Part shown: positions 599 through 59,767 of the stretch, piece after piece | How the letters are laid out: each line of letters opens with the position of its first letter | How positions within the stretch are numbered: the first letter of the stretch is position 1 | NCBI GenBank assembly: GCA_963920765.1 | Contig: OY987245.1 | Coordinates: forward strand, 22,026,727-22,090,726 | Length of the DNA: 64,000 nucleotides | Direction of reading: 5' to 3' | Source: Ulota crispa | Taxonomy: Eukaryota > Streptophyta > Bryopsida > Orthotrichales > Orthotrichaceae | Translations under genes and position numbers: made by a program | The notes under the pieces: model-generated | What the model was told of the DNA's origin: nothing | Databases searched by the model: none | What the model saw: the letters and a program-made list of their open reading frames with translations, nothing else

Positions 599-1685
599 TT
601 AACCCCTGAGCGCCCCACCTCCTCAAATATTGTCTTCCAAAATTTGTCTTTCTCAAAATTGGGTCCATATCAAAAGTGTATTGCCCAAAAAACTATACTT
701 AGTTTAGGCTATGGTATTAGGCCAGTCTATTGCACTTACGTTGATGTGGGGTTGGGGTGGAAAACCTCAGGTCTTTCACTAGCCAAAAAATGTGAGAGTG
801 TAACTATTGCCATCTAGTAATTGAATTAGGGAGTTTTGAATTCATTTTTGAATTTAGAGACACTTCATTAGTCTAGATTGTGGAGGAGGATACAATTGGA
901 TAATATAAATATAGAGGACAAATTATTACCATTACCCTTCTATGTAAAAAAATTTGAGGTCTTCCACCCCGGCCCCACATTGACGTATGTGCAATAGACT
1001 GTGCCATGGTACTACTCTCATGTCACATAGTGGGCAGTGGGGGTTTCACCACTTGTATAAGCACAAATCATATAAGATGACAATAGTGTGGCAAATATTC
1101 ATTTTTTGCGGTTTAGGGTTTAGCAACAAGGATATAGACCATCAGAAGTGGCCAGTTCCATGCTATTAGGGGAGTTTTGGCACGCATGCCTCATCATAGA
1201 GAGGGGTTGCAGCTATACCATTGAGAGCCGTGCCCTTGTGGAGATCAAAGCCGTATTTGTCCTTTGTCTATTGTCCACCATGTCGTGTGAGCCTTGCAAC
1301 TTTGGGCCTCTAAAAAAGCACCTTTTGATGTCAAAACATCACCAAATTTGGCATCAAGTGAACTACTTGTAAATTGCTTCCCTTGCCTAAATTTCATCAA
1401 AAGAAGCCTCTTCTAAGGCATGAGTTTTTGCATCCACACCCACGGACCCCCCCCCCAAATTGGCCGGTTGCCACATAGTCGTCTATACTTTGATTATCAT
1501 AATCTCTAAAATGGTGCGGTCAAAAGTTTTGGAAATTTTTGTTTGGGTGCATCAAGCACCTTTTTTTGCTATTTTAGCTGTGAGTCCTCCTCAATCTAAG
1601 TTTCCATCTCAAGGAGTACAATGTTTTTGAGCATGGTCCCATTGGCCTCATTTTCTTGATTAAACTGCAGGTGCTCAAGGGTTAA
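599..1685. mobile_element. TTAA-flanked element, CCCCTGAGCGCCC ends
   Basis: The left end reads TTAACCCCTGAGCGCCCC and the right end is the complement of TTAACCCTTGAGCACC. TTAA stands at both borders. No coding frame is recognisable. A 286-bp Mutator-like MITE sits inside at 720-1005. It belongs to the sub-group with AGCGCCC ends (10309, 22867, 31589). Confidence 0.7.
720..1005. mobile_element. MITE with 9-bp target duplication, Mutator-like
   Basis: Inverted ends of about 40 bp (GGCCAGTCTATTGCACTTAC against the complement of GTATGTGCAATAGACTGTGC) are bordered by ATGGTATTA (711-719) and ATGGTACTA (1006-1014), a 9-bp duplication with one mismatch. That length suits the Mutator superfamily. 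Diverged relatives occur at about 33025-34620 and possibly 7065-7385 and 19990-20240. Confidence 0.7.
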
Positions 1686-2815
1686 GGACTAACCTGCCTT
1701 TTCATGGGCTTTTTGAGATAAAAATAATTTTTGTCTAATTTTGAGACAAAGAGAAATGGATGCCAAATGTAACAAAAATGTTTTTCATATTTTTTAAAGC
1801 ATTATGAAATTGTCAATGAATCTTAAAAAATAATTGTAGTAGACTTCTATTTGTGATTCTAGGTCTCCCATAAATTGTTCCCTTACAACTTGTAAAGAGA
1901 TGAGACAAAATCATGATATATGATTGATTCTTGTAATAAAATATACCTTTCTTCTATGACTAAAGAGGGTCCATTCAAGAACCATCTCATATCCATTCTT
2001 GAGCTGCCAATGGGACGCTTTACAAGAGGGGTCGCAATCTGAGCTACCTACCGTAGTTTATATATTGTCAAGTTAGACTGGCCTTGGAAAAATTTACATT
2101 CAAAAATTTCAAATGAGTGATGCTTTCACAATTACAGTTGTTGAACATTTGTTTAATTTATTGCCGCTCTATTTTGTTCAAATTGCAATTGAATTAAAAA
2201 AAACATGCAGGAATTAAAAGTCCTTTGATGTTGATCTAGAACGTTATATACAAGTAGGTTAGCTCTAGGTTTTCAAACAACCTGTTACGTGTAACACTGC
2301 AGGTTGTGAAATTGTCTAATTGCATGCGTAAAACTTAAAATATGTGACCCTACTAGAATTACTCCATATTTAACCAAATTTGAATCATTCATGCATTTTT
2401 AAATTACGTTTGCAAAATATTGGAAAATTTCCCAATGTTGAAGGACACAAACCTTTCAAAGTTTTGCACAGATCTCCAAATTTTTCACATGTACGATATA
2501 TCTCCAAACTTTTTTCAGAACTATTAAATCTTAATTTTAGATTGATTAGAAAGAGTTAACATAGCATGATTAGAATGAGTTAACATAGCATGATTAGAAT
2601 CTTAAATCGTGATTATTAATTCTGATATGTAGGCATATATACCACTATATAAAGATAATATACATTTTTAGAATATTGTGCTACAAACTTGAGGCCAAGA
2701 ACAAACTCCACATCATATTAACAACATTCAACAAAGGCATCTTTGAAATTCATGCATAATAGCATATCAAATTAATTGAAGGTTAATATTGGAGAAAATA
2801 ACTTGTGAAGAGAGT
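1686..2815. other. AT-rich intergenic stretch, no gene seen
   Basis: No coding frame, RNA gene or complete transposon is recognisable. The only structure noticed is a short tandem duplication of GAGTTAACATAGCATGATTA near 2555-2602. Confidence 0.5.
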
Positions 2816-2823
2816 ATTTAGTT

Positions 2824-3444
2824 CTCAGGGAGATCACTAATTTGTGTTTTAGAAACGTAAGAAAGATAGGGCCCATTTAATTCAAATGACAAAAATTATA
2901 TATAATACTTAGAGCTATTATAGGGTTCATGAAATATTATATATTTTAGTATATATAAATTAGGGTATGTAAAAACATTAGGTAGTAGGATTTTTTATGA
3001 CAAATAGGAATTGTGAAGATTTATAGTATTATTTGTTGCTTTCCATGTTAATTCTTTTTGAATTCATGCCATAAAATTGAGAGATATTAAAAACTTGTAA
3101 ATAAAAATTTCCACTTTGACAATAGTCCTTTAATTCATATGCCTATTATTGGTTTCATGGTGAATACCATGTGTTTGTATGTAATAGAAAAAAAGGTTTT
3201 TTTGACAAATAATGGAGATATGACAAAATTGGACAAAAGAAGTTTACACATAAAATAGCCCCATTTAAAAACCAAATGAATTAATTTATGAAAAAAACAC
3301 AGGATACCTTAAATATGACTTGCGTAGCGTTTTATATAAAAATACAATCATTTTAAATACCATATTTTAAATAAATAGGCCTACATCAAATATCCTCTTA
3401 ACTCGGGTGTATACCATAAAATTATAAGGAGTGATCTCCCCGAG
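2824..3444. mobile_element. Mutator-like non-autonomous element, GGGAGATCACT ends
   Basis: It starts CTCAGGGAGATCACT and ends AGTGATCTCCCCGAG. The flanks are ATTTAGTT (2816-2823) and ATTTAATT (3445-3452), an imperfect duplication. The relative at 57326-58171 has a perfect 9-bp duplication, which supports a Mutator-type assignment for both. There is no coding frame. Confidence 0.7.
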
Positions 3445-3452
3445 ATTTAATT

Positions 3453-4020: not shown

Positions 4021-4030
4021 TTCTAGTAAT

Positions 4031-4344: not shown

Positions 4345-4354
4345 TTCTAATAAT

Positions 4355-8383: not shown

Positions 8384-8385
8384 TA

Positions 8386-10030
8386 GAGAGATCAGGTCAT
8401 TTGCAACTTGGTGGAATTGATCAGGAACTTGAGATCTTCCACAATCCACAGTCATGACATCTGCTGCAAAATCATTTTCCCGTTTGAAACCTCCTGAGTC
8501 CTGTGCTCTTATGAATTTAGTCTTCAACAGTATTAATCAATTAGGTTTAAAAAGTATGATAATACCAAACCCCTCTCAATTCTCAAAGAAAGATTTGGTT
8601 TGCCAACATTAGGATGATAACCATATAGTCGAATATGCGCATGGGGATGATTTCATCCGTTTTTTTTTTTACTTCTTTAGATGCATTTTAGAGCAGTGTT
8701 CGGTGAGAACTGGCATCTAATGTATTGTCCACCGGTTGAAATTGCAAAAAAAAAAAAATGGTTGAAATTTGAAATTACCCGATAAAAAATTGGCCATATT
8801 TTTAAAAAGTCTCAATTATAGTATGTTAGAAAAGAAGTATAGGAATTTTACTGAAAATAATTAATGCATGCTCACGAAAAATCAATTCAAACTGAGAAAT
8901 GTTGGATTTTAAACCAGGGAAGTTAACCCCTATATGCCAGGTAAGTCACGGTGACTGCCCATCTACAAGCAAGTGCCCACCCGTTATACCACTATTTTCA
9001 AAAGTTGCAAAGGTCAATAGTGCATGTTGACCTCATGAAAATTGTAAGACGGACAACATGGGACCTTACACCATGTTTTTTTGAATATTCTCACAATTTT
9101 GGCTACCTAAAATCACAAGGATGCACTCCACATTTTTTTGGGTACATGTGCAATCAATATTTTTGACCCCTATCTTTATATTGTGAGAAATCAATTAAAT
9201 AGTTTGAAAAAATTATAGTGTGTTTTTCTATATTGAAAGTCTACTTTGTGAATTATTGAATATTTTCTTTTTTCTAAATAATTACTTGCAAACTTTGAAA
9301 GAAAATAAATACACTATATAGCTGAAAAGGCAATTTGACCCCTACATTATATGTTAAAAAATATTTTAAAAAACATTTTGAAATTTTCAATAAATGATGG
9401 TTTGGTTACAGTTTGTGTATACCAAAGTTGGATACAATTGTCATTCAGACACAATCTTGATAAATAATTGAAGTGAGAATTCAACCATTTTAGTGCAATC
9501 TACAATTGCACGTTTGGATATCTTGTTTAGTTCATTTGAATCCAATTTGTTTTCACATAAAAGATATAATGATTTTGTGAGAACATCCAAAAACTTGGAG
9601 CTAAATGAATATTTTAAAAAGTAAATAGGGGGTGGAAATTTTACTTGATCGCACGTGATCTCCGAAGAATACACTAAATGACCTCATGTGCCTAAAATAA
9701 TGTGTACAATTGGTGAGAATGTTTTTTGCCTTCTATGATAGATCATATCTTCATGATCACTTCTAAAAAAATAAGATGAAAACCGTTTTTTTTTCACCCT
9801 ACATAGTGTTTTTTTCCATAACCAACAAATGTTATTGTCTGCCTTGTAGTTTACGGGTTAAAATTTCTCCTCAAACATTGTTCTAGAGTGCATGTGACTT
9901 TATCAATGGAAAAATAGGAAAACTTCTACTTCTTCTCTCAATAATCGTTTTCTCTATTACAAATATGAACCAATTTTTCCTCTGGTCATTGATAGAGAAG
10001 TCAATTGTGGTATTTCCATTGGTCAAATAC
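8386..10030. other. Intergenic stretch with one exon-like piece
   Basis: At 8386-8527 the minus strand is open and less AT-rich than its surroundings (about 48 residues from a Met at 8527, containing RAQDSGGFKRENDFAADVMT). I do not recognise it. It could be an exon remnant or chance; its downstream part runs into the 7984-8383 MITE. At 8923 TTAACCCCTATATGCC resembles a TTAA-element end, but no partner end was found. Nothing else is supported. Confidence 0.3.
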
Positions 10031-10308: not shown

Positions 10309-11713
10309 TTAATCCCTAAGCACCCAAGCGCCCCATATATTGCCTCCTACAATTTCCAAGCCTTGTTTTGAGGGACTAGATCTAACTTTTTGATCTTGCT
10401 ATAAACTACAATTATGAAGGCATTCAAGTTGTCCATGTCAATGGAATAATGGCAAGGAAAGTCAAATGTTGTACAAGTGCTACAAAAGATTTGATTGGGT
10501 GAAAACACCATATGGGGCGTGGTGACACCGTACGGGGCGTGGTGGCAAGCAATGTTTTACAGGCTGCAACTAGTCAATATCCCTTGCAAGCTTCCTTGTG
10601 TAAGCTTTGTGGTAGCGGGAAAATTGTTGGCAAGGATTCAAACATGTTCTAAACCCTTATTATGGCAACCATCACCAATTGTGCCGGTCTTTGTTTTCCA
10701 TGCAATAGCAATTTGAAGCCCCAAAACTTGACATAAAAAGAAATGCAATCTTCAATAATTCACAAGTGTGTACATTCACATCTAATCTTGTTACTCACAA
10801 AATTTGAGATGAATCAAGGGCTTATGGAATCTTGTAAAAATCATCAAATAGCAACTACCTACCAAAAAATGAGATTTTGTCATCACATGTTGTTTGATCA
10901 AATGTGGGGTAAGAATCTAGTTGGGGTATCACTTTTTGGACACACTAATTAGGTTATTTTTGTTTAAAACTCCAAAGTTTGTCTAATTTGTTCATTTTGA
11001 TCAAGTAAAAAACCCTAAAATGAGAAGAAATAAGTTGTGCACCTCAATGGAATCAAAATTTATATGTAAAGAATTTTTATTAAATTTATTAATTTTTTTA
11101 GATCCATTCATAGGTGTCAAAAAAATCCTGAATTTTGGGATTTGCAGGCATTATAGTGCACAATTTATTATATTTTTATTGATAAAATAAATTATTTTTT
11201 ACTCTACACAATTACTTGTAGGTCATATGCAAAAATAATATTAAAATAATTTTTTTTGATATTCCAAATGCTTGATTTTGGGGATTCTAGGTAAGTGTGA
11301 CATAACTTCATTTTTCAACTAAAAAATCAAATAAAATTACTTAAAAATCTTTGGTTGTAATCAAGCTTTTTTTCTTGTTACGTTATAAGTGTAGAAAACT
11401 AAAACCACATTTGGTGAAGCCTTAATTTATTCTAATTAAAAATTGGATGTGTTTGACACACCAACACATAGTGAAATTGTAAGTTGAACAGCTTTTTTGG
11501 GTACCCCAACCAGACACTTCCCTTGTGATAATTTCCCATCTCCCGCAATGAATTGTTCCCAAAATGTGCGAGCCATTTTCTAAGTAGGTGTTCCACTACT
11601 TTTAATGATCACTTTTTGTGCATCATTTGATTGACTGAGATACAATGCATCAAAGTTGTCTATCTCCAAAAACCCTAATTTTGGTGAAAACGGCCTAAGC
11701 ACTCAAGGGTTAA
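10309..11713. mobile_element. TTAA-flanked element with a 0.6-kb insert
   Basis: The left end is TTAATCCCTAAGCACCCAAG and the right end is the complement of TTAACCCTTGAGTGCTTAGG. The inner segment 10495-10900 is nearly identical to 23051-23440 of the relative at 22867-23626, so the two are copies of one element. This copy carries extra DNA at about 10906-11524 that the other lacks. Confidence 0.75.
10906..11524. mobile_element. Insert with TCTRGTTGGGGTA inverted ends
   Basis: Comparison with the copy at 22867-23626 shows this block is an insertion. Its ends align as inverted repeats (GGGGTAAGAATCTAGTTGGG against AGGGAAGTGTCTGGTTGGGG complemented). It is non-autonomous and its superfamily is unassigned. 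Confidence 0.6.
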
Positions 11714-12623: not shown

Positions 12624-13330
12624 TTAACCCCTAGACGTCAAACCCATTTTTTCTCAAAAAATACTCAAAACTACCCTTTTCAATCATTTGATCCCACTAA
12701 AAATATTTTTCTTTTTTCTACAAACCCAACCATAGGATGTTGCAAGGAACCTGGATGAAATTTTCATGAGGCTTGATTGTACAGTGGCCTCCAACGTAAC
12801 TTCATTCACTAGACAATTGGTTCATGTGCTGAGGTGAACAAAGCTACGTTAGAATATGCGGTATAGATTGAGAGATGAGCATTTGGAGTTAGTGTAAAAA
12901 AATTGACCTTTGCCCAAGTTTTCAGGTCCCTTTGACGGCATGTTGTGGGCACATTTTGCATTCTAGATGCAAGAATTTTTTCAACATGCTCTAAATTATG
13001 TTGAGAATATTTACATATGTTTTCATGGCCAATAAAGACTTGAAACATTCCCTTCATATGCATGCATTGCAAACATGTGCTTGAAAATCTCACTACACTA
13101 AGGTTTTTTGCAAATCAATTTTTTAACATTGGTTTTTGAGAATTAAAAATCCTAATGGTGTATTGGAGAGTTTTGACTATATTGAGAACCACAAAAAAAA
13201 ACTAAAAAGAAATCAAATCTCTAATAGTTATTGCATTTGGAAAGTTAGTGTATTTATCAAATACAACAATGTATTTATCCAATACACTATTGCTTTGGAT
13301 ATACTCCAATGAAGGGTCAAGCTTATACTC
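12624..13330. mobile_element. TTAA element, one end only (CCCCTAGACGTC)
   Basis: It starts TTAACCCCTAGACGTCAAAC. The first 700 bp follow the element at 16922 closely in word order (TTCTCAAAAAA.ACTC, GGATxTTGCA, TTGATTGTAC, AATACACTATTGCTTT). After a short tandem duplication (ACTCCAATGAAGGGTCAAGC at about 13303-13347) the similarity is lost and no closing TTAA end is found. Confidence 0.55.
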
Positions 13331-13499: not shown

Positions 13500-13825
13500 A
13501 GGTAGTGTGCTCATAAACCGTCCATCTAAGGGCTGAAATTGAATTTTGGGGAGGTGAAACTTCTTGAACTATTTTTTTGTAAATTTTCCTTGAAAGACAA
13601 GAAGAATTGACATCTAACCCAAGTTATTTCATATTTTTTGGAGCTTTGTGGAATTAGTTATGAAATTTTGAAGTGGAAAGGCCATAGGTCTCTAAAACCG
13701 CCCACCTCCTCAAATGTACACTACTTATACATTTTATAAACTTGTGAAAAAAAACATGTACAGCAAGGGTACATTTGAGAAGGTGGGCAGTTTTAATGCC
13801 TAAACAATTTATGAGCGGACTACCT
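13500..13825. mobile_element. MITE, AGGTAGGAG family, TA-flanked
   Basis: The left end is AGGTAGTGTGCTCATAAACC and the right end is GAGCGGACTACCT, with TA outside both. The interior (AAGGGCTGAAATTGAATTTT; CACCTCCTCAAATGTACACT) matches the members at 21363, 46285 and 51148. Confidence 0.8.
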
Positions 13826-14118
13826 TATCTCCAAAATGACCATGGCACTTCCTGAGCTTGTAGGAATTTGCAATAATTTGAAGTAAAAGCCAACAATTTG
13901 ATAAGTAGTATCAATTCTTTTTGAATTGTAACTGTATAAAATCAAACTAGACATGATAGGGATCACATTAGAATAGAGAACACAACAATATCTCTTATGG
14001 ATTGAAAGATTATAGTGTTCAATGATGAAGGTATTAAAACTGTGAAAGTGATTTGAAGGCTTTCAATCTCCTTTCCACTTGTCAAATCTAAAAATTTGGT
14101 CACCAGAAAAATATGAGG

Positions 14119-15051
14119 TTAACCCCTAAAGGACCAAGCCATTTTTTCTGTGAAAAACACTCAAAACTGCCACTTTTGGGGAAGCAAGTACAATGGTAAG
14201 AAAAAAAGTTTCTTACTAGAATTCAACCATAAGATCTTACAGTGGACTACAAGAGATACACGTGGTAAAAAATTCAGCTCAATCTACACAAAAATGAGTG
14301 AGATATTTACATTTGAATTGCAGAATTGAGTTTTTTTTTTGCTGCTGCCCAGAAATTTCAGAAGGCTTTGACCACTCTTAGATCAAAAAAAATACTCTAC
14401 ACAAAATTGAGGTTTATTTTTCCCATGTAGGAGACCAAGTTAGGTATGTGTGAGAGAATTTTCAAATCAATTGGAACTATACAACACATGGGAAAAAATG
14501 GTAAGTAAAAAGAAGTAGAGAATGAGTCAGAGCACTAAATTGTTAAGAATTTAATTATAAAAATGAGAAATGCAAATCCCAACGGTTATAATGTTGTGTG
14601 ATAAACAATCTACATCCTTTGGTATTGTTTTTTTTTCAAAATATTGAAAATTGAGTAAAATAAAGGACTTCTAAGTTTATTTTAGAGTAGAGAATCTAGA
14701 ACTGCCCGCAAACAAAAACTCCTCATAAATTTCATCTCATCTATCAAAATTGAATGATTCAAAGCTTCCCACGTCTATATAAGTCTAAAGAACCTATTTG
14801 AGATTTTTATTTGAAAAAAATGAAATTTTTAAAGAAGTTTTTGGCTGCCCCTCAAACACTGTTTTTCATAAATTCTTGCATAACTTCTTCATCAAATGTC
14901 AAAATGAAGAAAAAATTAGATGCCCACGTAGATCTTTGAATTCCCCACCTTCAATAAAAGTTTCAAGAAATCACAAAAAGTAGATTAGCCATAGGTACAT
15001 GCCCAAAATCCCATTTGTCCCCCAAGGGGACTTTGGTCCTTTAGGGATTAA
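14119..15051. mobile_element. TTAA element, CCCCTAAAGGACCA family
   Basis: TTAACCCCTAAAGGACCAAG at the left and GGTCCTTTAGGGATTAA at the right form the inverted ends, with TTAA on both sides. Length 933 bp, typical of the group (910-940 bp). Non-coding. Relatives: 21942, 50115, 52627, 53599, and the fold-back form at 26390. Confidence 0.85.
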
Positions 15052-15295
15052 CCCCTAAGCATCAAAGAGGATGTTTTTGGATCCGGATACTAGGAACACT
15101 TTAATCATCAAACTTTATAATCTCCATATCTGTATGGTGGATTTCTACACAAATTATAGATTTGCACTTATCAAGAAGTTGCCAACAAATTTCTAGGGTG
15201 GATTTTTTAATTGTTGCTTACACTCCAAGTTATTCCATTTAGTTTATAATGCTCTCCCAAATTTTGTTGTTTTGTTTGTGACGCTTAGGGGTTAA
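15048..15295. mobile_element. Short TTAA MITE, CCCCTAAGCRTCA ends
   Basis: The ends TTAACCCCTAAGCATCA and TGACGCTTAGGGGTTAA are inverted repeats. Its left TTAA (15048-15051) is also the right TTAA of the preceding element, so one inserted into the other's target duplication. Confidence 0.85.
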
Positions 15296-15815
15296 AGGGC
15301 CCAACATGGATAACCCCAATCAATTTACGACTTCTCAAAATCTACTCTACAATTTTTTTAATGAATTTCTAATGTGATTTTTTCTCAAAGATCTAGTGTA
15401 TCTGAGGCTCACTCCCAAGAGCCCTCAACACTACATAAAGTCAAGATTGCAATGGACACCCGTGCACAAAATCTTGAACAAAAAAATCATAATCAATCAT
15501 TTGTAAAATCAGGTTATTGAAGCTAAAACTAAACTTCAAAAAGAAATTTTCAAACAATAAACTACTAAAAGTAGTAATTTGGTAAGGTTTTATTTAACTT
15601 CAAGAACTGGTCCAAGACACATTCTATCCTCAAGGTCGTTTTGGGGTTAATACACATGAAACATGAACCTTGGTGTGGGATCAGGATACATCACCCTTTA
15701 GCTCTAGTGCATGATGTTTATAACAACAATTAGATGTTGTGATAAGATATACCAATACACAACACAAATACTCACTAACTCAAAAACAATTCCAGTGGCA
15801 AGAAGAACAAAACTC

Positions 15816-16446
15816 TCAACCCCTAAATGCCTGGGGCCTATTTTGAGCTCTTAGTAATTTTCTCTAAATTGAACAAAAAGCCAACATTTTTATAGGTTGT
15901 ATCAAAAATTTTAAGATTGTAACCATACAAATCCAAACTATATATGTTAGAGAGCACATAGGAGAAGAAAATACAACAATATCACTTATGGATTGAAAGA
16001 TTATAATGTTTAATCATGAGGGTTTTAAAATTGCAAAAACAACTAAAGTTGTTCAATCCTCTTTTCACAAGTTGAATCTAAAAAGTTGGTCACCAAAAAA
16101 ACATGAGGTTAAAGTGCATAACATACATAACTCAAATTGCTTTACGGCTTTTCAAAATTTCTTTTACAATTTTTAAAAATGAATTTCTAGTGTAAAATTT
16201 TCTCCAAAATCTAATGTATTTAAGGCTCATTCCCAAGAGCTCTCAAAGTCAAGACCTTTGCATAAAATCTTGAATAGAAAAATCATAATCAATCCTTTTC
16301 AAAATTAGCTTTTTGATGCTAGAACTAAACTTCAAAAAGAATATTCAAAAAATACAAACTATTAAAAATTACAATTTAGTTAAGTTTATTGAACTTCAAG
16401 GTATTGTCAATACCAAAATTTGGTGCTGCAGGCATTTATGGGTTAA
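15816..16446. mobile_element. TTAA element, CCCCTAAATGCCTG ends
   Basis: The left border TCAACCCCTAAATGCCTG (a decayed TTAA) and the right border CAGGCATTTATGGGTTAA are inverted repeats. The interior follows 13825-15650 and 19013-19663. Its internal TTAA at 16109-16112 is empty. Confidence 0.75.
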
Positions 16447-16921: not shown

Positions 16922-17820
16922 TTAACCCTTAGAGGCACAAGTCCATTTTTTTCTCAAAAAACACTAAAAACTGCCATTTTCTAATCATTTAATTTCAAGA
17001 ATTATTTTTGTATTTTTATTATGTACAGACTCAACTATTGGATCTTGCATATGAATTACGCAAGAAGACATTGGGAAAGTTACTTGAGTTTTGATTGTAC
17101 GGATCAAGAGATATGATCATTTTAAGCTAGTTTAAAAGTTATTTTAACCTCTTCCCAAAATTTTCAGGTCCCTCTGATTGCATGTTGTAAGCATTTTTTG
17201 CAATGTGGGTGTTTTAAAGATTTGTTCAACATACTCTAAATTGTGTTGGCATATCTCCACAAGTATTCATTCATGCCAACAAAGATCTCGAACATTATCT
17301 TTGTGGGCTTGTATTGCAAACATGTGCTTGAAATTCACATTACATTAAGATTTTTTGCAATCCATATTTTGGAAAGTTAATTTTGAAAAATAGAAATCCA
17401 AATTGTGAATTCAAAGATTTTAGCTTTAATGGTAACCATAGCAATTTATAAACTAAAAAAACCAAATCTCTAGTAGCTAATGCATTTCAAAAGCTATTGT
17501 ATTTATCAGATATAATAATATATTTGCCTAGTACCTTATTGCTTTAGATATGTTCCATTGAAGATTCATGCCTTGAGTAGTTACCCTTGGGAGAAGTCAC
17601 TAAAAAGGGGCTAACATACCCTTGAACTAAAAAAAACCTAAAAACCACCAATAACCTTTGAAATGAGAATCTGATTTCAATAAAAATTATACCCCCATGT
17701 AGCCTTTGCAAAACTCTACTTCAAGTAGAAAAAAATAAAAAAATAAAAAAACGATCAAATTCCCAATTAAACAAACTTGCCCAAATCCCATTTTATCCCC
17801 ATAGGAACAATGGGCCTTGA

Positions 17821-18580: not shown

Positions 18581-19005
18581 GAGCATCTACAGCGATTCAC
18601 TCTAAACAAGCAGATGGCGTGCTCAATGGCTCTTGGTCCCGTCTCGGATCTCCACCGGTGGCACGCGGAGAGAAAGAGTTGGAGCAGCCTTGCCAAATTG
18701 ACCTCTGGGGATGTTGAGTTGCCACAACTTAAAAGTTTTTTGCGAGTTCAATTTGCAATCTTTTGGTGTCTATTTTGGGATTGTGTTGCAACAATACCTG
18801 TCCTATGTTGCTGGTAACCTATCATATTCCAACATGACAACCTCTAGGCAATGTAGGATATTTGCCATTGCAAATATATTGCTCCCAAGTCATTGTTGCG
18901 GGCCACCAGTGGACTCCTGCAACCCAGATGTGCAAGGCTACAAAAACAAGGCTCTCGCAAATCCTTTCTCCCTATCCCTTTTCTACCAGACCAGTGGAGA
19001 TGCCC
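18581..19005. mobile_element. Harbinger-type MITE with TAA on both sides
   Basis: It begins GAGCATCTACAGCGATTC and ends CCAGTGGAGATGCCC. TAA at 18578-18580 and 19006-19008 is a matching 3-bp duplication, as expected for PIF/Harbinger. Confidence 0.8.
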
Positions 19006-19012
19006 TAAGGGG

Positions 19013-19663
19013 TTAACCCCAATACAACCTTGAGGATAGAATGTGTCCTGGACCAATTCTTGAAGTTAAATAAAACCTTACCAAATTACTACTTTTAGTA
19101 GTTTATTGTTTGAAAATTTCTTTTTGAAGTTTAGTTTTAGCTTCAATAACCTGATTTTACAAATGATTGATTATGATTTTTTTGTTCAAGATTTTGTGCA
19201 CGGGTGTCCATTGCAATCTTGACTTTATGTAGTGTTGAGGGCTCTTGGGAGTGAGCCTCAAATACACTAAATCTTTGAGAAAAAATCACATTAGAAATTC
19301 ATTAAAAAAATTGTAGAGTAGATTTTGAGAAGTCGTAAATTGATTGGGGTTATCCATGTTGGGCCCTTTAACCTCGTATTTTTTGGTGACCAAATTTTCA
19401 AATTTGGCATGTAAAAAAAGATCAAAAGCCTTCAAATCGCTTTAATAGTTTTAACACCCTCATGATTAAACATTATAATCTTTCAATTCATAAGAGATAT
19501 TGTTGTGTTTTCTTTTCTAATGAGATTTTTAACATATCTAGTTTGATTTTATACAATTACAATTCAAAAAGAATTAACACAACTTATCAAAATGTTGACT
19601 CTTTGTTCAAATTAGAGCAAATTCCTACAAGCTCAGGAATTTCCAGGGTCATTTTGGGGTTAA
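19013..19663. mobile_element. TTAA element with empty internal TTAA
   Basis: TTAACCCCAATACAACC at the left and GGTCATTTTGGGGTTAA at the right. 651 bp. Its complement follows 15295-15650 almost base for base. The internal TTAA (19368-19371) is unoccupied, whereas the copy at 13825-15650 holds two elements there. Confidence 0.85.
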
Positions 19664-21941: not shown

Positions 21942-22870
21942 TTAACCCCTAAAAACCCATTGTCCCTTTGGGGGACGTTGAACTTTGGGCATGTACATTT
22001 GGCTAAACTATTTTGTGTGATTTTCTGAAACTTTGATTGAAGGTGGGGAATTCAAATGTCTATGTGGTCATTTAATTTTTTCTTCATTCTCACATTTGAT
22101 GAAGAAGTTATGCATGAATTTATGAAAATTTGGGGAGGAATGCCTGTCTGTGCAGCCAAAAAATTTCTTTAAAATTTCGTTTTTTTAAAATAAAATTTTG
22201 GAATTGGTTCTTTTAATTTTTTTATAAGTGAGAAGCTTTGAATTATTCAATTTCAATCAATGAGATGAAAGTTATGAGGAATTTTTGTTCACGGGCAATT
22301 ATGGATTCTCTACTCTAAAATAAACTTTGAAGTTTTATTTATTCTATTTTCAATATTTTGAAAAACAATTAAACCAAAGGAAGTAGATTATTTATCACAG
22401 CATTATAACCATTGGATTTGCATTTTTCATTTCAATAATTAAATTTTTGACAATTTGGTGTTTTGACTCATTCTCTACTACTTTTTGCTTACTATTTTTT
22501 CCCATGTATTGTGTAGTTCCAATTGATTTGAAAATTCTCCCACACATACCTAACTTGATCTCCTACATGGAAAAAATAAAGTGCAACTTTGGGTAGAGCA
22601 ATTTTTTTGTTATAAGAGTAGTCAGAGGCTTTTGAAACTTTCAAGCAGCATGGAAAAAAAAAAAAAAATTCACTTTAGATGTAAATAATTGATTCCTCTC
22701 CATATGAAATGATCTGATTTTTCCCCACAAGTACCTCTTCTAGTCTAGAGCAAGATCCTATAGTTGGATTTCCCAAAAACAAAACATAAAATCCCTTTAT
22801 ACTAAACCTCCTCGAAATGGCAGTTTTAGTGATTTTCATAGAAAAGAGGGTCTGATCCTTTAGGGGTTAA
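21942..22870. mobile_element. TTAA element, CCCCTAAAGG family, first of a chain
   Basis: TTAACCCCTAAAAACCCATT opens and GATCCTTTAGGGGTTAA closes; 929 bp. It is the inverted orientation of 14119-15051. The closing TTAA (22867-22870) opens the next element. Confidence 0.85.
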
Positions 22871-23626
22871 CCCCTAAGCGCCCTAGCAACGGGATCATGT
22901 TGCTGAGGATTTCATGTACTTTTTTAAAGAACCAGATCTAATTTGTTGATCTTACTATAAACTACAATTATGAAGGCGTTCAAGTTGCCCATGCCAATGG
23001 AGTAATTGCAAGGAAAGTCAAATATTGTACAAGTGCTGAAAGAGGATTGATTGGGTGAAACACCATACAGGGCATGGTGGCAAGTAGCGTTGAACAAGCT
23101 GCAACTAGTCAATATCCCTTGCAAGCTTCTTTGTGTAAGCTTTGTGGTAGTGGGAAAATTGTTGGCAAGGATTCAAACATGTTCTAAACCCTTATTATGG
23201 CAACCATCACCAATTGTGCCGGTCTTTGTTTTCCATGCAATAGCAATTTGAAGCCCCAAAACTTGACATAAAAAGAAATGCAATCTTCAATAATTCACAA
23301 GTGTGTACATTCACATCTAATCTTGTTACTCACAAAATTTGAGATGAATCAAGGGCTTATGGAATCTTGTAAAAATCATCAAATAGCAACTACCTACCAA
23401 AAAATGAGATTTTGTCATCACATGTTGTTTGATCAAATGTTACAATTTCCCATCTCCCACATTCAATTGTTCCTAAAATTTGCAAGCCATTTTTTAAGTA
23501 GGTGTTCCACTGTTTTCAATGGTCACTTTTTGTGAATCATCCGATTGACCAAGATATGATGCATCAAAGTTGTAGGCCTCCCAAAACCCTAATTTTGTGA
23601 ATATGGCTTGGGCGCTCATGAGTTAA
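22867..23626. mobile_element. TTAA element, CCCCTAAGCGCCC ends, second of a chain
   Basis: The ends TTAACCCCTAAGCGCCC and GGGCGCTCATGAGTTAA are inverted repeats. 760 bp. It is the uninterrupted counterpart of 10309-11713. It shares a TTAA with both neighbours. Confidence 0.85.
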
Positions 23627-24277
23627 CCCCTCACTATCCAAGGGGACCAAAACTGTCCACCTTGCATTTTAATTTGGATTTTTTTTACTTTTCTTGAAGA
23701 TTAATTTTTATTGGTTATTTTTTAAAATTATTTGTATTGAAGGCTTGTTCTAGTGTCAAAAGTCTGATTTTGAAAATGACTAATTATGATTTCTCTATTT
23801 AAGATTTTGTGCAAGGGTGTCCACTGCAAATCTTCACTTTCTAGTGTTGAGAGCTCTTGGAAATGAGCCTAAAATACATTAGAACTTGGAGAAACAATCA
23901 CATTAGAAACTTAATTTAAAAAGTTGTAGAGTAGACTTTAAGAAGCCGTAAATTGATTAGGGTCACACATGTTATACTTTACAAACTCATATTTTCTAAT
24001 ATCCTCAATTTTAAATTTGAGATGTGAAAAGAGGACTGAAAGACTTCAAATCACTTTCACAGTTTTAACACCCTCTTGATCAAATATTATAATCTTTCAA
24101 TCCATAGGTGATATTGTTGTGTTTTCTTTTCCTATGTGATCTCTAACATATCTCATTTGAATTTGTACAATTACAATTTGAAAAAAATTGATACAACTTA
24201 TCAAAATGTTGACATATTGTTCATCCAAGAACATATTCTGCAATACTCGGGAACGTCTATGGGCGATGAGGGGTTAA
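23623..24277. mobile_element. TTAA element, CCCCTCA ends, third of a chain
   Basis: The ends TTAACCCCTCACTATCC and GGGCGATGAGGGGTTAA are inverted repeats. The interior resembles 19013-19663, including ATGATTTCTCTATTTAAGAT, CAAGGGTGTCCACTGCAA and TTGTAGAGTAGA. Confidence 0.8.
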
Positions 24278-25060: not shown

Positions 25061-25069
25061 TTTCTTGTG

Positions 25070-50114: not shown

Positions 50115-51035
50115 TTAACCCCTAAAGGACCATACCCCTTTTTTAGAAACATAGCAATTTTGGGCAGGTACCTGTGATTGGAGCTTTTCATTTTTTAGGC
50201 TGAAATTTTAATAGAATGTGGAGACAACATTTATCTTTCATATGCACTAAATTTCATGACATTTGGAATTACAAGTAAAAAAATATGGCCTATTATGTTG
50301 TTTTTTACATTTGTTGGGCAGCCTAGGCTGATTTTTAAAATTCATTTTTTTCAAAAATAATTTTTTAAAATTGGTTTAGAAGATTTATATGAATGTAGGA
50401 AGCTTCAACTCATACTATTTGGATCAACAAGATGAAAGTTATGAGGATTTTTTGTTTGCGGGTAGTCATGGATTCTCTACTCCAATATAAACTTTGAAGT
50501 CCATTAATTTACTCAATTTTCAACATTTTGGAAGCAAAACAAAATCAAAGGATAAAGATTGTTTATGACAACATTATGACCATTGGGATTGGCATTTTTC
50601 ATTTCCATAATTAAGTTCTTAACAATTTAGTGTTATGAATCATTCTCTACTTCCTTTTACTTACTAATTTTTTTCCATATGTTGTACAACTCCAAATAAT
50701 TTGAAACTTTTTTAACATGTACTTTACTTAGGTAGAATAAGGAATTTAGAGAAGCACTACCCACATGGCCTTTTTTCCTTAGGAATTTCACCTTATGAAG
50801 GGTAGCTGCCCAATTTTTCACAAGACGTTTTTGAATATTCAAACCATTCTAACTTCCAATCCACGTGGTGGAAAACTTTGAATTCTTTTACATATCTTCT
50901 AAAACCATTCTTCTACAAGATCCTACGGTCACATATGCATAAAAATGTTTTTGTTTTCAAATTTGGTTGATGCTCTAAAAATGGCAGTTTTGAAGAGTTT
51001 TTGGTGAAAACTTTGCTTGGTCCTTTAGGAATTAA
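50115..51035. mobile_element. TTAA element, CCCCTAAAGGACCA family
   Basis: TTAACCCCTAAAGGACCATA opens and GGTCCTTTAGGAATTAA closes; 921 bp. Same element as 52627-53536 in the opposite orientation (GGCAGGTACCTGTGATTGGA near its left end; CAATCACAGGTACCTGCCAA near the right end of the other). Confidence 0.85.
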
Positions 51036-52626: not shown

Positions 52627-53536
52627 TTAACCCCTAAAGGCTAAAGGACCAGGCTCAACTTTCACCAAAACTCTCAAAAACTGCCATTTTTTGAGCATCA
52701 ATCCAATCTGAAAATAAGAACGTTTTTATGCATATGTAACCGTAGGATCTTGTAGTGCAATAATTTTAAAGATGTGGGAAAAAATTCAAAATTTTTCATT
52801 TAGAGGATTGGAAGATAGAACAATTTGAAAGATCATATGGAAAACTAGGCAATTACTTTTAAAAGGTGAAATTCCTAAGAAGAAAAGGTCATGTTGGCGG
52901 TGCTTCTCTAAATTCCATATTCCACCTAAATAGGGTGCATGTCAAAAAAGTTTCAAATCATTTGGAATTGTACAACATATGGGGAAAAAAAAGGGAGTAA
53001 AAAGAAGTAGAGAATGATTAAAAACATTAAATTGTTAATAATTTAGTTATGAAAATTTAAAAAATTCAATCCCAAATGTTGTAATGTTGTAAGTAACAAT
53101 TCACATCCTTTGGTCTTAAATATTTTTGAAAATATTGAAAATAGAGTAAAATAAGAGACTTAAAAGTTTATTTTAGAGTAGAGAATCCATAACCGCTTGC
53201 AAACAAAAACTCCTCATAACTTTTATCTCATCAATCCAAATGGAATGATTCAAAAATTTCCACATACACATAAATCTCTTGAACCAATTTAAAATTTTGG
53301 TTTTTGAAAAAAGTGATTTAAAAAAAATTGCCCAAGCTACCTGCCAAGCAAAAAAAACATCATATTAGGCCATATCATAATTCCAAACATCATGAAAAGT
53401 TAGTGCAAATGAAAGATACTCCTTGTTCCCACCTTCTATGAGAATTTCAATCTAAAGTATGAAAATCTCCAATCACAGGTACCTGCCAAAAATTTCTATG
53501 TTACCAAGTAAGGCAACTTGGTCCTTTAGGCATTAA
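52627..53536. mobile_element. TTAA element, CCCCTAAAGG family
   Basis: TTAACCCCTAAAGGCTAAAG opens and GGTCCTTTAGGCATTAA closes; 910 bp. Opposite orientation to 50115-51035. Confidence 0.85.
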
Positions 53537-53598: not shown

Positions 53599-54537
53599 TT
53601 AACCCCTAAAGGACCTAGCCCTTTTTTTTTGCCAAAATCACTCAAAATTGCCACTTCTAGGGGATGAGTAAGAAGGTAGATTTTTTTCTTTTTTTGGAAA
53701 TCCAACCGTAGGATCTTGCCTTAGACTAGAAGAGGTGCTTGTGGGAAGAAATCAAGTCATTCTAGATGGAGAGGAGGGAGATGTTTACATCTAAAGTGAA
53801 GGGAAAAGTTTTTTTTCCCTGCTGTTTGTAAAATTTCAGAAGCCTTTGACCACTCTTACATGAAAAAAATGGCTCTACCCAAAGTTGTGCTTTTAATTTA
53901 CCATATAGTAGATCAAGTTAGGTATATGTGGGAGAATTTTCAAATCAATAGGAACTACTTATCCCATGGGAAAAAATTAGTAAGTAAAAAGAAATAGAGA
54001 ATGAGTCAAAACAATAAATTGTTAAGAGTTTAATTATTGAAATGAAAAATGCAAATCCCAATAATTATAATGTTGCGATAAGCAATCTACTTACTTTGGT
54101 TCAATTTTTTTTCCAAAATATTGAAAATGGAGTAAAATAAAGGACTTCAAAGTCTATTTTAGAGTAGAGAATCCACAATTGCTTGCAAACAAAAACTCCT
54201 CATAACTTTCATCTCATTGATTGGAATTGGATGATTCAAAGCTTCCCACATGTAAAAAAATCTAAGAAACCAATTTCAAATTTTTATTTTAAAAAGAAAT
54301 TTTTTTAAAGAAGTTTTTGGGCTGCCCAAATTGCCCCTCCTCCCCTAGTTTTGATAAATTCTTGCACAACTTCTTTGTGGAATGTCAAAATGAAGAAAAA
54401 ATCAAATGCCCACATGGATCTTTGAATTCCCCACTTTCAATAAAAGTTTCAAAAAATCACACAAAGTAGTTTAGCCATAGGTACATGCCCAAAATCCCAT
54501 TTGTCCCCCAAAGGGACAATGGTCCTTTAGGGATTAA
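53599..54537. mobile_element. TTAA element, CCCCTAAAGGACC family
   Basis: TTAACCCCTAAAGGACCTAG opens and GGTCCTTTAGGGATTAA closes; 939 bp. Same orientation as, and strongly similar to, 14119-15051 (CAAATGCCCACATGGATCTT near the right end). Confidence 0.85.
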
Positions 54538-54922: not shown

Positions 54923-56670
54923 TTAATCCTTAAGGACTTGATCCATTTTGAAATGCTCAAACTTCATGTTTAAGCTAAATTTTGCCTTTTAAAGTGTGTT
55001 CAAACAACAATTATATATTTTCATTGCTTAAAACTATGAATGATATGTCACTACATGATATTTCAATTTGTTTCATAAAAAATTGTAATTTTCATTATTT
55101 CTTTTCAAAAAATGAACACAAATAAGTTAAAATAGCAAAAAATATCCAAATTATTTAAATTTTTTTCAAGACGAACAAGCAGCCTTAAAAATTTCAATTG
55201 GTTACTTTATTTTCTACACCCAAAACAGCCACAACAAAGAATCTAAAGTCAAATTTGACTATCAAACCAACTTTATTTTTATATTTAACCCCTAAAATTC
55301 TTTTGTGTTTAAAGGCCCAAAACTGCTTCAAAATACTAGTTCCAAACTAGGGTCAAAATCTTCATTGAAACTTACTTTTTCACAAATCCAACGTAGCATC
55401 CTTTAGTTGACTTGCACAACTACATTGTCCCAAAATTTTAGAATGAATATCCCCACCAATTGCAAGATCAATGTACCCAAACTTCAAAATGTAGGCTTTT
55501 CTAATCCTTCTAGAAGGTGAAGTTTTGATTTTCAAACTTTTTAGAAAAAAACACATATGTTGTATTTCTTGTGCAATTTTTGCAACATGTTGGAAAATGG
55601 GTTGAAAGCATATAAGAAAAATATTAACCAAACAAAACTTTGGATTTATTTTTACAAAAATTGTAAAGTGAAAGGTAATGATGAATGAAAGATGTAACTT
55701 ATATGCTAAGAAGTTTTGGAAGAATTTGAAAATTGTTAATCCCAATGGTGAGAATGCTCTAACACACAATTAGTAACTTTACTTTTCATTTCATTTGTAA
55801 TTTTTTAGAATTGAGAGTAAAAGATAACTTTATATGTTTTTTCTATCCTCTTCCTACCTTCATTGCCCGCAAAGTAAAACTCCTTTTAACTCTTACCTCA
55901 TTATTTGGAATTGAGTGATTCAAATTTTTTTGAGTAGGTATCATTCTATTAAATTATATTTAAAAAATTTAAAAAATAAGAATATATTTCTTGCTGCCCA
56001 GTTTGACATTAAAATTGAAAAAACCTTATAACTTTTGCATTACTTATTGGAATGACATGAAATAAAGTTTCACATGTAGATTATGATGAGTAGCATCCAT
56101 CCTAAAAATCCAATGAAAAATTTCCAAATTATGAAGTCAATAGAGCCTGCCCGCGTTCTCATAAAGCCCAAAGTGGGCTCCTTGGGTCTTTAAGGGTTAA
56201 TTAATGTATAAACTTTTGATATTTTTTCAATGGAGTACACATTCATTATCTATCCATATAACTCTTTTCAATAAATTTGATGGAAAACTTGAAATATTGT
56301 GATTTTTGAAGTTGAATGTGGAAATAAAATCATATCAGTTAAAATACATATTAAAAATTTGTAATCTCAACCATAAATGAATGGTAGAATGAAAAAAATA
56401 GTTTAGTTGTTTTAATTTAAAATGCATTTAAAGAGTAGAAAATATGAATGAAAAACACACCATATTTATTGAGTTACTTGGAGTTTTCAATGGCAACAAC
56501 TCTTTCAATTTTTGATATTATTCAAAAAAATTAAATGGAATAGAAAGAATACTTGTCAAGCTTCATTTTCTTAGTTTGAACCACGTACCAAAAATTAATA
56601 TTTTGAAAGTTACAACAAGGGTTGACCAAAGCACATCCACTTTTTGGATGCACAGACCTTAAAGAGTTAA
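54923..56670. mobile_element. TTAA element with another TTAA element inside
   Basis: TTAATCCTTAAGGACTTGAT opens and CAGACCTTAAAGAGTTAA closes. About 830 bp outside the 55285-56200 insertion. The end pairing is imperfect, so the outer borders are less certain than the inner ones. Confidence 0.6.
55285..56200. mobile_element. TTAA element, GGCCTTTAGGGG ends, copy 2
   Basis: TTAACCCCTAAAATTC opens and GGGTCTTTAAGGGTTAA closes; 916 bp. Nearly identical to 28882-29798. The 129-residue minus frame inside (55380-55769) is open only by chance; its counterpart in copy 1 is shorter. Confidence 0.85.
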
Positions 56671-56858: not shown

Positions 56859-57091
56859 TTAACCCCCTGAACAATCCAAAAGTCCTTTGCAGCTGTATGT
56901 ACAATCGTGTGTACATACGTATTTGAGCTGCTTTGAGGGCTTTCTAAAAAAATTTATGCACCCATCATCATACAACCCTTCAATATGTATGGTTGTAACA
57001 CTTAATTTCAAGCTGATTCAAACTTTTGAATAATGGTTGCAACCATACTTGGTACCGTAACTCCAATGCCCAAGGGCCCTTCAGGGGTTAA
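56859..57091. mobile_element. Short TTAA MITE, CCCCCTGAA ends
   Basis: TTAACCCCCTGAACAATCC opens and GGGCCCTTCAGGGGTTAA closes; 233 bp. Its right TTAA (57088-57091) also starts the next element. Confidence 0.75.
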
Positions 57092-57200
57092 TCCCTAAAG
57101 GCCTAGGCCTTTTTTATGAAAGTCATTGAAAACTGTCACTTTTGGGGGAATGAATAGAAAGTTAGAAAAACTTCTTTTTTTGGGAATCTCCTACAAAGGG
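57088..57200. mobile_element. Left fragment of a CCCCTAAAGG TTAA element
   Basis: TTAATCCCTAAAGGCCTAGG followed by GAAAACTGTCACTTTTGGGG matches the first 100 bp of 14119 and 53599. The rest is missing or displaced; the next element begins at about 57203. Confidence 0.6.
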
Positions 57201-57325: not shown

Positions 57326-58171
57326 CTTGGAGAGATCACTTAGTGTATCTATAACTAACCACGTGAGTTAAGTGATTTTTTGTCCCCTTGTTTACTTTTA
57401 AATGTACTATGATGTCAACTTATAATTTTGAGCATTGTTTAATCATGACTATAGGATTCTGTTGCCCAAACCTTCAATCCAAATAATTTATTAAATGACT
57501 TTTAGAGAAGGTTGAAAATTGAACTAAAATGGCATATTTTTCAACTCAAATATTAACCCCTAAAGGATGTTGTTGTTTTGTATACAGACTCTTTGTGTTG
57601 TATACAGACTCTTTGTGTTGTATACAGATGGGGTATTTGGATAGCATATGAATCCCATTGTAGTTGTAAATTTCAAGCCAAGTCATAAACATACTATTGG
57701 TCAACTAGATTTTTTTGGGGAATTTTAGGCATTTTTTATAAAATAGTTTCTTCAAGTACTAAATGATTCTTGTACAAATACAGACAACACTTTTGGTATG
57801 CAACATCCTTTAGGGGTTAATAGAGAACAAATCTAGATGACCATTGCATTAATATTCAAGATATACAAACTTTTAATAGAGCCTAATTTTTGAGAATTTT
57901 TGGTGTATTTTTTAAACAATTTTTTCTTATATAAGATAGGGGTGTGAAAGTTATTTTCAGCTATGTAGTGTATTATTTTACTTCAAAATTTTGTAACTAA
58001 TTCTAAATTACAAATAAAATTATCATTAATTCAAAACATAAACTTCCAAAGTAGGAGAATCTACTCATATTTTTTTTCTTTTTCTTTTATTTAAGTTTTA
58101 GAACATAAGATAGAGGTCCAAAATCTTAATGCACGTGGTTTTAAATAGACCCTCTAAGTGATCTCCCCAAG
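57326..58171. mobile_element. Mutator-like element, perfect 9-bp duplication
   Basis: The ends CTTGGAGAGATCACTTAG and CTAAGTGATCTCCCCAAG. ACATAGGGC at 57317-57325 and 58172-58180 is an exact 9-bp duplication. Non-coding. About 580 bp without the nested TTAA MITE. Relative: 2824-3444. Confidence 0.85.
57553..57820. mobile_element. Short TTAA MITE, CCCCTAAAGGATGTTG ends, copy 2
   Basis: TTAACCCCTAAAGGATGTTG opens and CAACATCCTTTAGGGGTTAA closes. It differs from 28206-28452 mainly by a tandem 20-bp unit (TGTATACAGACTCTTTGTGT, two and a half copies). Confidence 0.9.
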
Positions 58172-58435
58172 ACATAGGGCCTTATAATTATGCAATTTAA
58201 ACTATCATCTCTTGAAAAACTTGCTATTTTTAATTATTCCATTAATTTTGAATTGAGAATCTACTCCTTGCTCACAAAATCTTGAATCCCCACTCATAGC
58301 TCAACATTTTATGCTCACCAAATACCATCGTCCATTTTTCAGCTATTACCCAATCAGATTTTGAATTTCAGTGGGCCTTAACGTTTGAGACTTAAAATTT
58401 TGAATACGGGACTTAGGAGTTAGGACTGAGGACTC

Positions 58436-58775
58436 AGGATTTGGGACTTGGGACTTTGGACGTGGGACTTGGGACTTTGGACGTGGGGCTTGGGACTTTG
58501 GACGTGGGGCTCAGGACTTTGGACGTGGGGCTTGGGACTTTGGACGTGGGGCTCAGGACTTTGGACGTGGGGCTTGGGACTTTGGACGTGGGGCTCAGGA
58601 CTTTGGACGTGGGGCTTGGGACTTTGGACGTGGGGCTCAGGACTTTGGACGTGGGGCTTGGGACTTTGGACGTGGGGCTCAGGACTTTGGACGTGGGGCT
58701 TGGGACTTTGGACGTGGGGCTCAGGACTTTGGACGTGAGACTCAGGGCTTGGGACATGGGACGTGGGACTTGGGG
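58436..58775. repeat. 21-bp minisatellite with alternating variants
   Basis: TTGGAC recurs fourteen times from 58456 to 58729 at an exact 21-bp spacing. After the first three units two variants alternate, one with GGGGCTTGGGACTTTGG and one with GGGGCTCAGGACTTTGG, so the true period is 42 bp. Diverged GGGACTTGGGAC-like edges lie on both sides. Because 21 is a multiple of three, several frames on both strands stay open; none is credible as a gene. Confidence 0.95.
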
Positions 58776-58852
58776 ACGTGAACAGCCCCTGAATACAGAT
58801 AGAACTGTCATCCTTTCCATGGAGCATGGCGTTTGCGTCGCGCAGATTTAAG

Positions 58853-59767
58853 TTAACCCTTTAACGACCACACCCATTTTCATAGAATCCATTGAAAACA
58901 CGGGTTGTAAGCTTAGATTTGGAATTGACTCAAATATGGACCCATTTTCCATAATCCAACCGTACAAATGGGAAGTACACCTTGTTTATTGTAAAGCACC
59001 AAAATTTCAGCTAGATTTATTGTTGTAGGTGAAACATTATAATGATTGAGTGAGCTGTATGTGGAAAATATCTTGTGTTTCATTCTTGTTTAGTTTTGAA
59101 TGTTAATGTTTCATGCAAGTTTTGATTGAGAAGAGCCTTACATTTCTAAAAAGCAAGGTTTCCCACTTTTCCAACAAGACTAGTTTCACACAAAATAAAC
59201 AAAAAAAGCAATCACAAGGTGTAGCTAAGTGGACAAAAAGGGTCAAAAAACCCACTTTCTTTGCTACCCTAAAATGGTTCTACAAGAAATTTGATATTTA
59301 TTATGGAAAATCCAATTGGTGAAAACAATCAAGAATTGGCCTTAAATGTAGGATGACAAATTTTAAAACCAAAATGACAACAACATTTCAATAGATCTTC
59401 AAATACTACAATTATACTACTACTATATATGAAAACAATACAAGCATATTTCTTAAGCAATTTGAATTTTTTTAGAATTGTGAAATTGAAATTTGACATT
59501 CTTCTTGGATGTTTGATGTATTGTGTTGTTGCTTTGATCCATCTTTGACAAAAAATGGATGTGTATTTTGAAGCCATGCCGTATAAACACCATTATTTAT
59601 CAACTCACATACCCAATTGCATTGTTATTTTTTTAGATGGATGCAAAATTCTTGTGATCACATGCGTACCTCAAGACCAAATTCCAAATTAATGAGTAAT
59701 TTCAACCTACAGGCCAAAAACCACTCCCAGCGACCATAATATGGTTGTGTAGTCCTTAAAGGGTTAA
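58853..59767. mobile_element. TTAA element, CCCTTTAACGACC ends
   Basis: TTAACCCTTTAACGACCAC opens and GTAGTCCTTAAAGGGTTAA closes. 915 bp with TTAA at both borders. A distinct sub-family of the 0.9-kb class. The Harbinger element begins 5 bp after it. Confidence 0.8.

What the first reader, a model, noticed from the sequence alone, without database searches (positions are those of the whole stretch)
599..59767. A large TTAA-flanked, CCC-ended element family set in a land plant
Seen: about 23 complete and 3 partial elements from 0.23 to 1.8 kb have TTAA at both borders and inverted ends beginning CCC(C)T (CCCCTAAAGGACC, CCCCTAAGCGCCC, CCCCTAAAGGATG, CCCCAAAA and others). They cover roughly a quarter of the window. 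Known: TTAA duplication with CCY ends is the signature of piggyBac; Kolobok and Sola3 also use TTAA. Such elements are little described from land plants. Inference: a TTAA-specific transposase is, or was recently, active in this genome, driving several non-autonomous sub-families.
Basis: partly seen in the sequence, partly recalled or inferred. Interest (0 to 1): 0.8.

Follow-up and report, generated by a model that had tools for sequence, protein, structure and literature searches.

The report
piggyBac transposons flooding a moss genome
The short repeated elements in this stretch of a moss genome are stripped-down relatives of piggyBac, a cut-and-paste transposon known mainly from animals, and the same genome holds larger piggyBac elements of the kind they derive from.

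Summary
The window has 19 elements with TTAA at both ends and about 8 one-ended or interrupted ones, with CCC(C)T inverted ends, covering 23.8% of it. Genome-wide, CCCCTAAAGGACC occurs 9,597 times (reversed control 3); 8,154 (85%) are directly preceded by TTAA. Empty sites with one TTAA (3 of 5 matches) show that TTAA is the duplicated target.

The source is piggyBac. The same 274.8-Mb genome gives 120 matches to the piggyBac transposase domain, best 1e-73. One 5,027-bp element holding it has three end-to-end copies on three chromosomes. The commonest window family (A) shares about 355 terminal bp, up to its TTAA, with two transposase-bearing elements. These are piggyBac elements and their deletion-type derivatives.

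The host is a moss: LEAFY 104 of 106 residues identical to entry 4bhk, plastid contig, TTTAGGG repeats.

Past and fairly recent movement is shown (98% identical copies, unrelated flanks). Present activity is not: no intact transposase among the copies examined. Eight searches of open papers listed no account of piggyBac in mosses.

The parts
599..1685 (.). element I, CCCCTGAGCGCC/CCCTTGAGCACC ends
   Evidence: ends listed, paired (10 of 16)
8923..9861 (.). element J; weak inverted ends (9 of 16), pairing is a judgement
10309..11713 (.). G-type element with extra internal sequence; homologous to 22867-23626
   Evidence: 10366-10905 90.7% and 11524-11713 82% to G1; TTAA at 10309
12624..13322 (.). 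one-ended copy; its terminal part is homologous to the right end of the piggyBac-bearing locus L034; right limit nominal
   Evidence: 74% over 116, 69% over 424; right end not found
13822..15650 (.). element D3, interrupted by A1 and C; left limit approximate, no TTAA there
14119..15051 (.). family A copy (A1); terminal 357 bp homologous to a transposase-bearing element
15048..15295 (.). element C, shares its TTAA with A1
15844..16446 (.). D-type copy with one clear end (16446)
16922..17571 (.). one-ended copy homologous over about 600 bp to the right end of L034; right limit nominal
   Evidence: 69.5% over 603
18957..19016 (.). one-ended: end CCCCTTAGGGCAT abutting D1; extent nominal
19013..19663 (.). 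family D copy (D1); also holds the empty site for A1+C (single TTAA at 19368)
21942..22870 (.). family A copy (A2)
22867..23626 (.). element G1, abuts A2 and D2 through shared TTAA; its right end reads CTCATGAGCGCC
23623..24277 (.). family D copy (D2); first 35 bases match the left end of the 5,027-bp piggyBac element of L030 at 27 of 35
26390..27116 (.). fold-back element A4, 16 of 16 end match, related to family A ends
28206..28452 (.). family F copy (F1)
28882..29798 (.). family E copy (E1)
31589..31650 (.). one-ended: lone left end CCCCGAGCGCCCC; extent nominal
   Evidence: partner end not found
50115..51035 (.). element K50, A-like ends
52627..53536 (.). element K53, A-like ends, 77% to K50 in inverted orientation
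53599..54537 (.). family A copy (A3)
55285..56200 (.). family E copy (E2); empty site found in L043
56859..57091 (.). short element S
   Evidence: ends; 81% to L047 192-424
57088..57189 (.). one-ended copy abutting S; end homologous to L053 end; right limit nominal
   Evidence: 75.7% over 107
57553..57820 (.). family F copy (F2)
58853..59767 (.). element H; relative 83% over 915 at L046 17-929

Best explanation
The elements are non-autonomous (mostly MITE-size) members of several piggyBac families in a moss. Larger elements of about 5 to 6 kb elsewhere in the genome carry a piggyBac-type DDE transposase between the same kind of TTAA-flanked CCC(C)T ends. The transposase binds the shared ends in trans, cuts the element out at TTAA, and pastes it into another TTAA, which is duplicated. 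Shown: ends, TTAA duplication, transposase-bearing elements with the same kind of ends, long terminal homology between family A and transposase-bearing elements, independent insertion of copies. Inferred: cleavage chemistry and seamless excision (from piggyBac itself), and which transposase moved which small family, apart from A, D and the 12624/16922 copies where end homology points to a source.
For: PF13843 gives 120 matches in the genome, best 1.3e-73; it rings in none of 14 control genomes, though these seem to be prokaryotes and so are a weak control. Among the 20 best copies aligned, motifs VTVDE, DNFF and GVDxxDQ recur, though not in every copy. One open frame (L031) matches piggyBac 6x67 at 4e-20 and piggyBat 9c0f at 6e-17. 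L030 and L045 align at 90.5% over 5,029 bp whose limits are L030's TTAA borders (L045's left border reads TTCA); with a third copy there are three end-to-end copies on C3, C10 and C8. L050 has a transposase in a 5,746-bp TTAA-bordered element with 15 of 16 end match. L053 and L054 (62% identical transposases) both carry the family A end over about 355 bp up to TTAA. L034's right end is homologous over 603 bp to 16920-17519. Empty sites with one TTAA: two D paralogs for A1+C, and L043 for E2. 85% of 9,597 ends are preceded by TTAA. E1, E2 and a third copy are 95-98% identical between their TTAAs with unrelated flanks.
Against: Only 6 of 13 transposase loci tested showed a CC-started TTAA end pair with at least 10 of 16 matches; Markov-shuffled sequence gives 0.8%, but sham positions in the MITE-rich window give 28 of 112, so end pairs alone are weak for single loci and the argument rests on the copies aligned. 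(Three loci fetched later, L053-L055, were not in that test.) The left end of L053/L054 was not found and does not match family A's other end. The cysteine-rich tail is seen as a motif only; Pfam gave no hit above cut-off for it. Two of the five joined-flank matches do not keep TTAA at the site. No intact transposase was found among the copies examined.
Confidence: 0.95

Rival explanations
1. The small elements were moved by another TTAA-using superfamily (Kolobok or Sola3), and piggyBac merely shares the genome.
For: Families E, F, G, H, I and J were not tied to a specific transposase here.
Against: Family A shares about 355 bp of its end with piggyBac-transposase elements; CCC(C)T ends and TTAA are those of transposase-bearing elements of 5.0 to 5.7 kb. 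No Kolobok or Sola search was made.
Confidence: 0.04
2. PIF/Harbinger MITEs with a TTA or TAA target, the fourth base being fixed by chance or preference; the window itself carries a Harbinger transposase frame at 61826-62809.
For: DDE_Tnp_4 at 3e-29 in that frame.
Against: TTAA is symmetric at both borders and single in empty sites. The frame lies outside every TTAA/CCC pair found; a search of its flanks for 14-base inverted ends found one pair, 13 of 14, which I take as chance. Ends match piggyBac-bearing elements instead.
Confidence: 0.01

Closest known systems
piggyBac superfamily (Trichoplusia ni piggyBac, PDB 6x67/6x68; bat piggyBat, PDB 9c0f)
   Same: TTAA target duplication, CCY ends, DDE_Tnp_1_7 transposase with the DDD motifs, cysteine-rich tail motif, non-autonomous derivatives
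   Different: Host is a moss; about 12 transposase groups at 60% amino-acid identity among the 20 best copies; elements of 5 to 6 kb, longer than the 2.5 kb of the insect element (recalled); tens of thousands of ends
'PiggyBac' MITEs listed for angiosperms
   Same: TTAA-flanked small elements (TTAA recalled)
   Different: A review (PMC10004981, passages seen) names PiggyBac among seven angiosperm MITE superfamilies, grouped by ends, target length and internal sequence; here transposase-bearing relatives are found in the same genome
Kolobok and Sola3
   Same: TTAA target (recalled)
   Different: Transposase here is piggyBac; those were not searched

Membership tests
piggyBac superfamily | 4-bp TTAA target duplication | tested here: met
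   single TTAA in 3 of 5 empty-site matches; 85.0% of 9,597 ends preceded by TTAA
piggyBac superfamily | inverted ends starting CCY | tested here: met
   also on transposase-bearing elements
piggyBac superfamily | DDE_Tnp_1_7 (PF13843) transposase inside elements with these ends | tested here: met
piggyBac superfamily | catalytic D, D, D at the piggyBac positions | tested here: met
   VTVDE, DNFF, GVDxxDQ in many of 20 aligned copies, lost in others (positions of the triad recalled); L031 has N at the third
piggyBac superfamily | C-terminal cysteine-rich zinc domain | tested here: inconclusive
   CxxC..CxxC..H-like stretch downstream of the domain in 12 of 16 loci by eye; no Pfam hit above cut-off for it
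piggyBac superfamily | seamless excision | not testable with these tools
   needs a second strain or an excision assay
piggyBac superfamily | small window families share ends with transposase-bearing elements | tested here: met
   family A about 355 bp; 12624 and 16922 copies with L034; D2 with L030, 27 of the first 35 bases; not shown for E, F, G, H, I, J
PIF/Harbinger | 3-bp TWA target | tested here: not met
Kolobok | Kolobok transposase | not tested
   no search made
Sola3 | Sola3 transposase | not tested
   no search made

The most novel reading that the evidence does not exclude
piggyBac is an old, highly diversified and still mobile resident of mosses, a main builder of this genome's small repeats (roughly a tenth of it), with local hopping, and has given rise to at least one intron-bearing host-like gene (L032) that keeps the catalytic triad.
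Probability: 0.25. Interest if true: 0.8.

Novelty: new member of a known kind. Interest (0 to 1): 0.62.

Why it matters
piggyBac is described mainly from animals, fungi and protists; [quoted passage not shown] A moss with over a hundred transposase matches, many deep lineages and tens of thousands of TTAACCCCTAA ends makes the history of the superfamily in land plants testable (old residence or transfer), offers plant-derived ends and transposases for comparison with the animal tool, and suggests that moss repeat annotations may have left such elements unclassified.

Tried and rejected
Window end pairs by terminal match alone gave several false pairings across neighbouring elements; homology limits were used as well. 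The end-pair test at transposase loci has a weak genomic control (28 of 112 sham positions), so it is not used as proof. Idea of preferred insertion next to existing elements: 5 abutting junctions in the window (15048, 19013, 22867, 23623, 57088), but only 9 head-to-head sites of the pattern searched genome-wide, no more than I would expect by rough reckoning; dropped. L034's apparent 6,021-bp element may be two elements, since 917-1842 can be paired too; only its right end is used. The left end of L053/L054 was not found. Species could not be named: no named plant collection is held. Rfam and tRNA scans of the window: nothing. Literature: eight searches listed no paper on piggyBac in mosses; the lists were capped at 12 to 20 titles. 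One moss genome paper listed with the string (PMC10619864) has it twice; the one passage shown reads 'piggybacking'. The library lacks most subscription journals and Repbase.
Full report
OBSERVATION. The window is G000:C4:22026727-22090726 of a 274.8-Mb assembly in 157 contigs. It holds 23 TTAACCC and 16 GGGTTAA strings. Taking every TTAA and scoring the adjoining 13 bases on each side against CCCCTAAAGGACC, 43 of 1,052 flanks reach 8 or more matches; the runner-up among all tetranucleotides is AAAT with 11 of 2,045. This consensus came from the window, so the genome-wide test matters more: CCCCTAAAGGACC is found 9,597 times (3 for the reversed pattern), and 8,154 of these (85.0%) have TTAA directly in front. 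TTAACCCCTAA is found 34,662 times against 231 reversed.

ELEMENTS IN THE WINDOW. Self-comparison shows copies of one family aligning from TTAA to TTAA: E (28882-29798, 55285-56200; 95.4%), A (14119-15051, 21942-22870, 53599-54537; 79-82%), F (28206-28452, 57553-57820; 78%); D (19013-19663, 23623-24277 and an interrupted copy) aligns over most of its length. I count 19 elements with TTAA at both ends and about 8 one-ended or interrupted ones; the 20 intervals used cover 15,240 bases or 23.8%. With 16 exact TTAACCCCTAA ends in the window and 34,662 in the genome, a rough single-window extrapolation gives about 33 Mb, some 12% of the genome; this is inference, and the window is about twice as dense in such ends as the genome average.

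TARGET DUPLICATION. Joining the flanks of the A1+C pair across one TTAA gives a sequence present uninterrupted in D paralogs at 19519-19218 (91.8%) and 15966-16246 (78.7%), each with a single TTAA; a third paralog (24131-23832, 80.2%) has TTGT at the site. The joined flanks of E2 match L043 with TTAA at the site (82%), with the caution that the flank itself begins TTAA again. For F2 a weak match (67.5%) reads TTTA. So three of five matches show the expected TTAA.

SOURCE OF THE TRANSPOSASE. The piggyBac profile PF13843 gives 120 matches in this genome (528 candidates, 116 scored), best 1.3e-73, none in 14 control genomes, which seem to be prokaryotes. By my count 10 of the 120 rows have no internal stop. 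Of these, C4:3591922 covers profile positions 2-340 but has N at the third catalytic position; L019 covers 30-349 with all three motifs kept, but a stop lies between its domain and the cysteine-rich stretch (its wider copy L033). 19 of the 20 best copies carry at least one stop; they share 27 to 81% amino-acid identity and fall into about 12 groups at 60%. A cysteine-rich CxxC..CxxC..H-like stretch follows the domain in 12 of the 16 loci scanned, by eye, but Pfam did not recognise it above cut-off. The L031 frame matches the solved piggyBac (6x67, 4e-20) and piggyBat (9c0f, 6e-17).

LINK BETWEEN TRANSPOSASE AND ENDS. The locus L030 has a 5,027-bp element with ends TTAACCCCTCATCGCC and TTAACCCTTCATTGCC around the transposase. 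L045 aligns with it at 90.5% over 5,029 bp, starting at the TTAA and ending one base past the other, although L045's left border reads TTCA. A genome search finds three end-to-end copies, on C3, C10 and C8 (100, 90, 88%); the borders of the C8 copy were not read. L050, L046 and L049 show TTAA-bounded end pairs of 5,746, 5,102 and 5,586 bp. The control for such pairs is mixed: 0.8% in Markov-shuffled sequence but 28 of 112 sham positions in the MITE-rich window, against 6 of 13 real loci; single loci are therefore not proof. The decisive link is family A: its last 357 bp up to TTAA align with the end of L053 (77.6%) and, at about 72%, with the end of L054, two separate elements of one transposase group. 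The 12624 and 16922 copies align with the right end of L034, the first over 116 and 424 bp, the second over 603 bp. The first 35 bases of D2 match L030's left end at 27 of 35.

AGE AND ACTIVITY. A search with E1 gave 1,315 candidates, of which 40 were scored; 38 of those 40 long matches (query included) run within 3 bases of both ends. Of the scored copies, those on other contigs are 89 to 92% identical, and the closest two are on C4 within about 37 kb: 98% and 95%. These three copies are alike only between their TTAAs and have unrelated flanks, so they are separate insertions, suggesting fairly recent local movement. A search with A3 gave 9,824 candidates, 40 scored, at most 87% identical apart from the query itself, as expected of an old burst. 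Present activity is not shown.

HOST. TTTAGGG repeats number 1,188+587 for a 28-base unit, and the part of the list shown places an array near the end of contig C1. A 107-residue LEAFY exon is identical to entry 4bhk (Physcomitrium LEAFY, species recalled) at 104 of 106 aligned residues, against weaker matches to four other LEAFY sequences. PsaA from a plastid contig matches 8htu and 6l35 best (Physcomitrium by recall). The transposase matches lie on contigs C1 to C11, among them C4, which carries LEAFY, and C1 with the telomere array, so contamination is unlikely. Species not identified.

LITERATURE. [quoted passage not shown] PMC10813416 and PMC8086355 (passages) name plants among hosts without detail. 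PMC10794571 (passages) counts PiggyBac among superfamilies of plant DNA transposons. The Ceratopteris paper (PMC6890710, one passage) tabulates 1,230 'PiggyBac' fragments, 0.00% of that assembly. PMC10004981 (passages) lists PiggyBac among angiosperm MITE superfamilies. A Physcomitrium transposon paper, PMC7466625, has no mention of piggyBac or TTAA in its main text (term count). My searches listed no description in a moss.

VERDICT. An ordinary piggyBac mechanism in an unexpected host, with unusual abundance and diversity.

Noticed in passing
window 61826-62809 (+): 327-aa open frame of a PIF/Harbinger transposase (DDE_Tnp_4 3e-29, Plant_tran 2e-11), outside all TTAA/CCC pairs found.
   Followed up: partly
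L032 1591-4841 (G000:C1 about 1.18 Mb): piggyBac-type gene with two GT-AG introns, open core frame and all three catalytic D; no TTAA/CCC left end found; a cysteine-rich stretch is in another frame. Candidate intron-bearing or host-like gene.
   Followed up: partly
window 15048, 19013, 22867, 23623, 57088: Elements abut and share one TTAA at five junctions; head-to-head sharing of the pattern searched is rare genome-wide (9 sites).
   Followed up: partly
L044 2529-2775: An F-family element (83% to F1, full length) lies between two exons of the LEAFY DNA-binding domain.
   Followed up: no
window 13825-14122 and 15290-15650: The two halves of the interrupted D copy differ in likeness to D1: 84.9% and 98.3%, suggesting gene conversion or a mosaic.
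   Followed up: no
window 25041-25925: Complex fold-back block of 128-135-bp units in both orientations.
   Followed up: no
window 58408-58771: Minisatellite with 21/42-bp period, open in several frames.
   Followed up: no
G000 contigs other than C157: 46 of 48 PsaA/PsaB matches lie off the plastid contig, many without stops, pointing to plastid DNA pieces in the nucleus.
   Followed up: no
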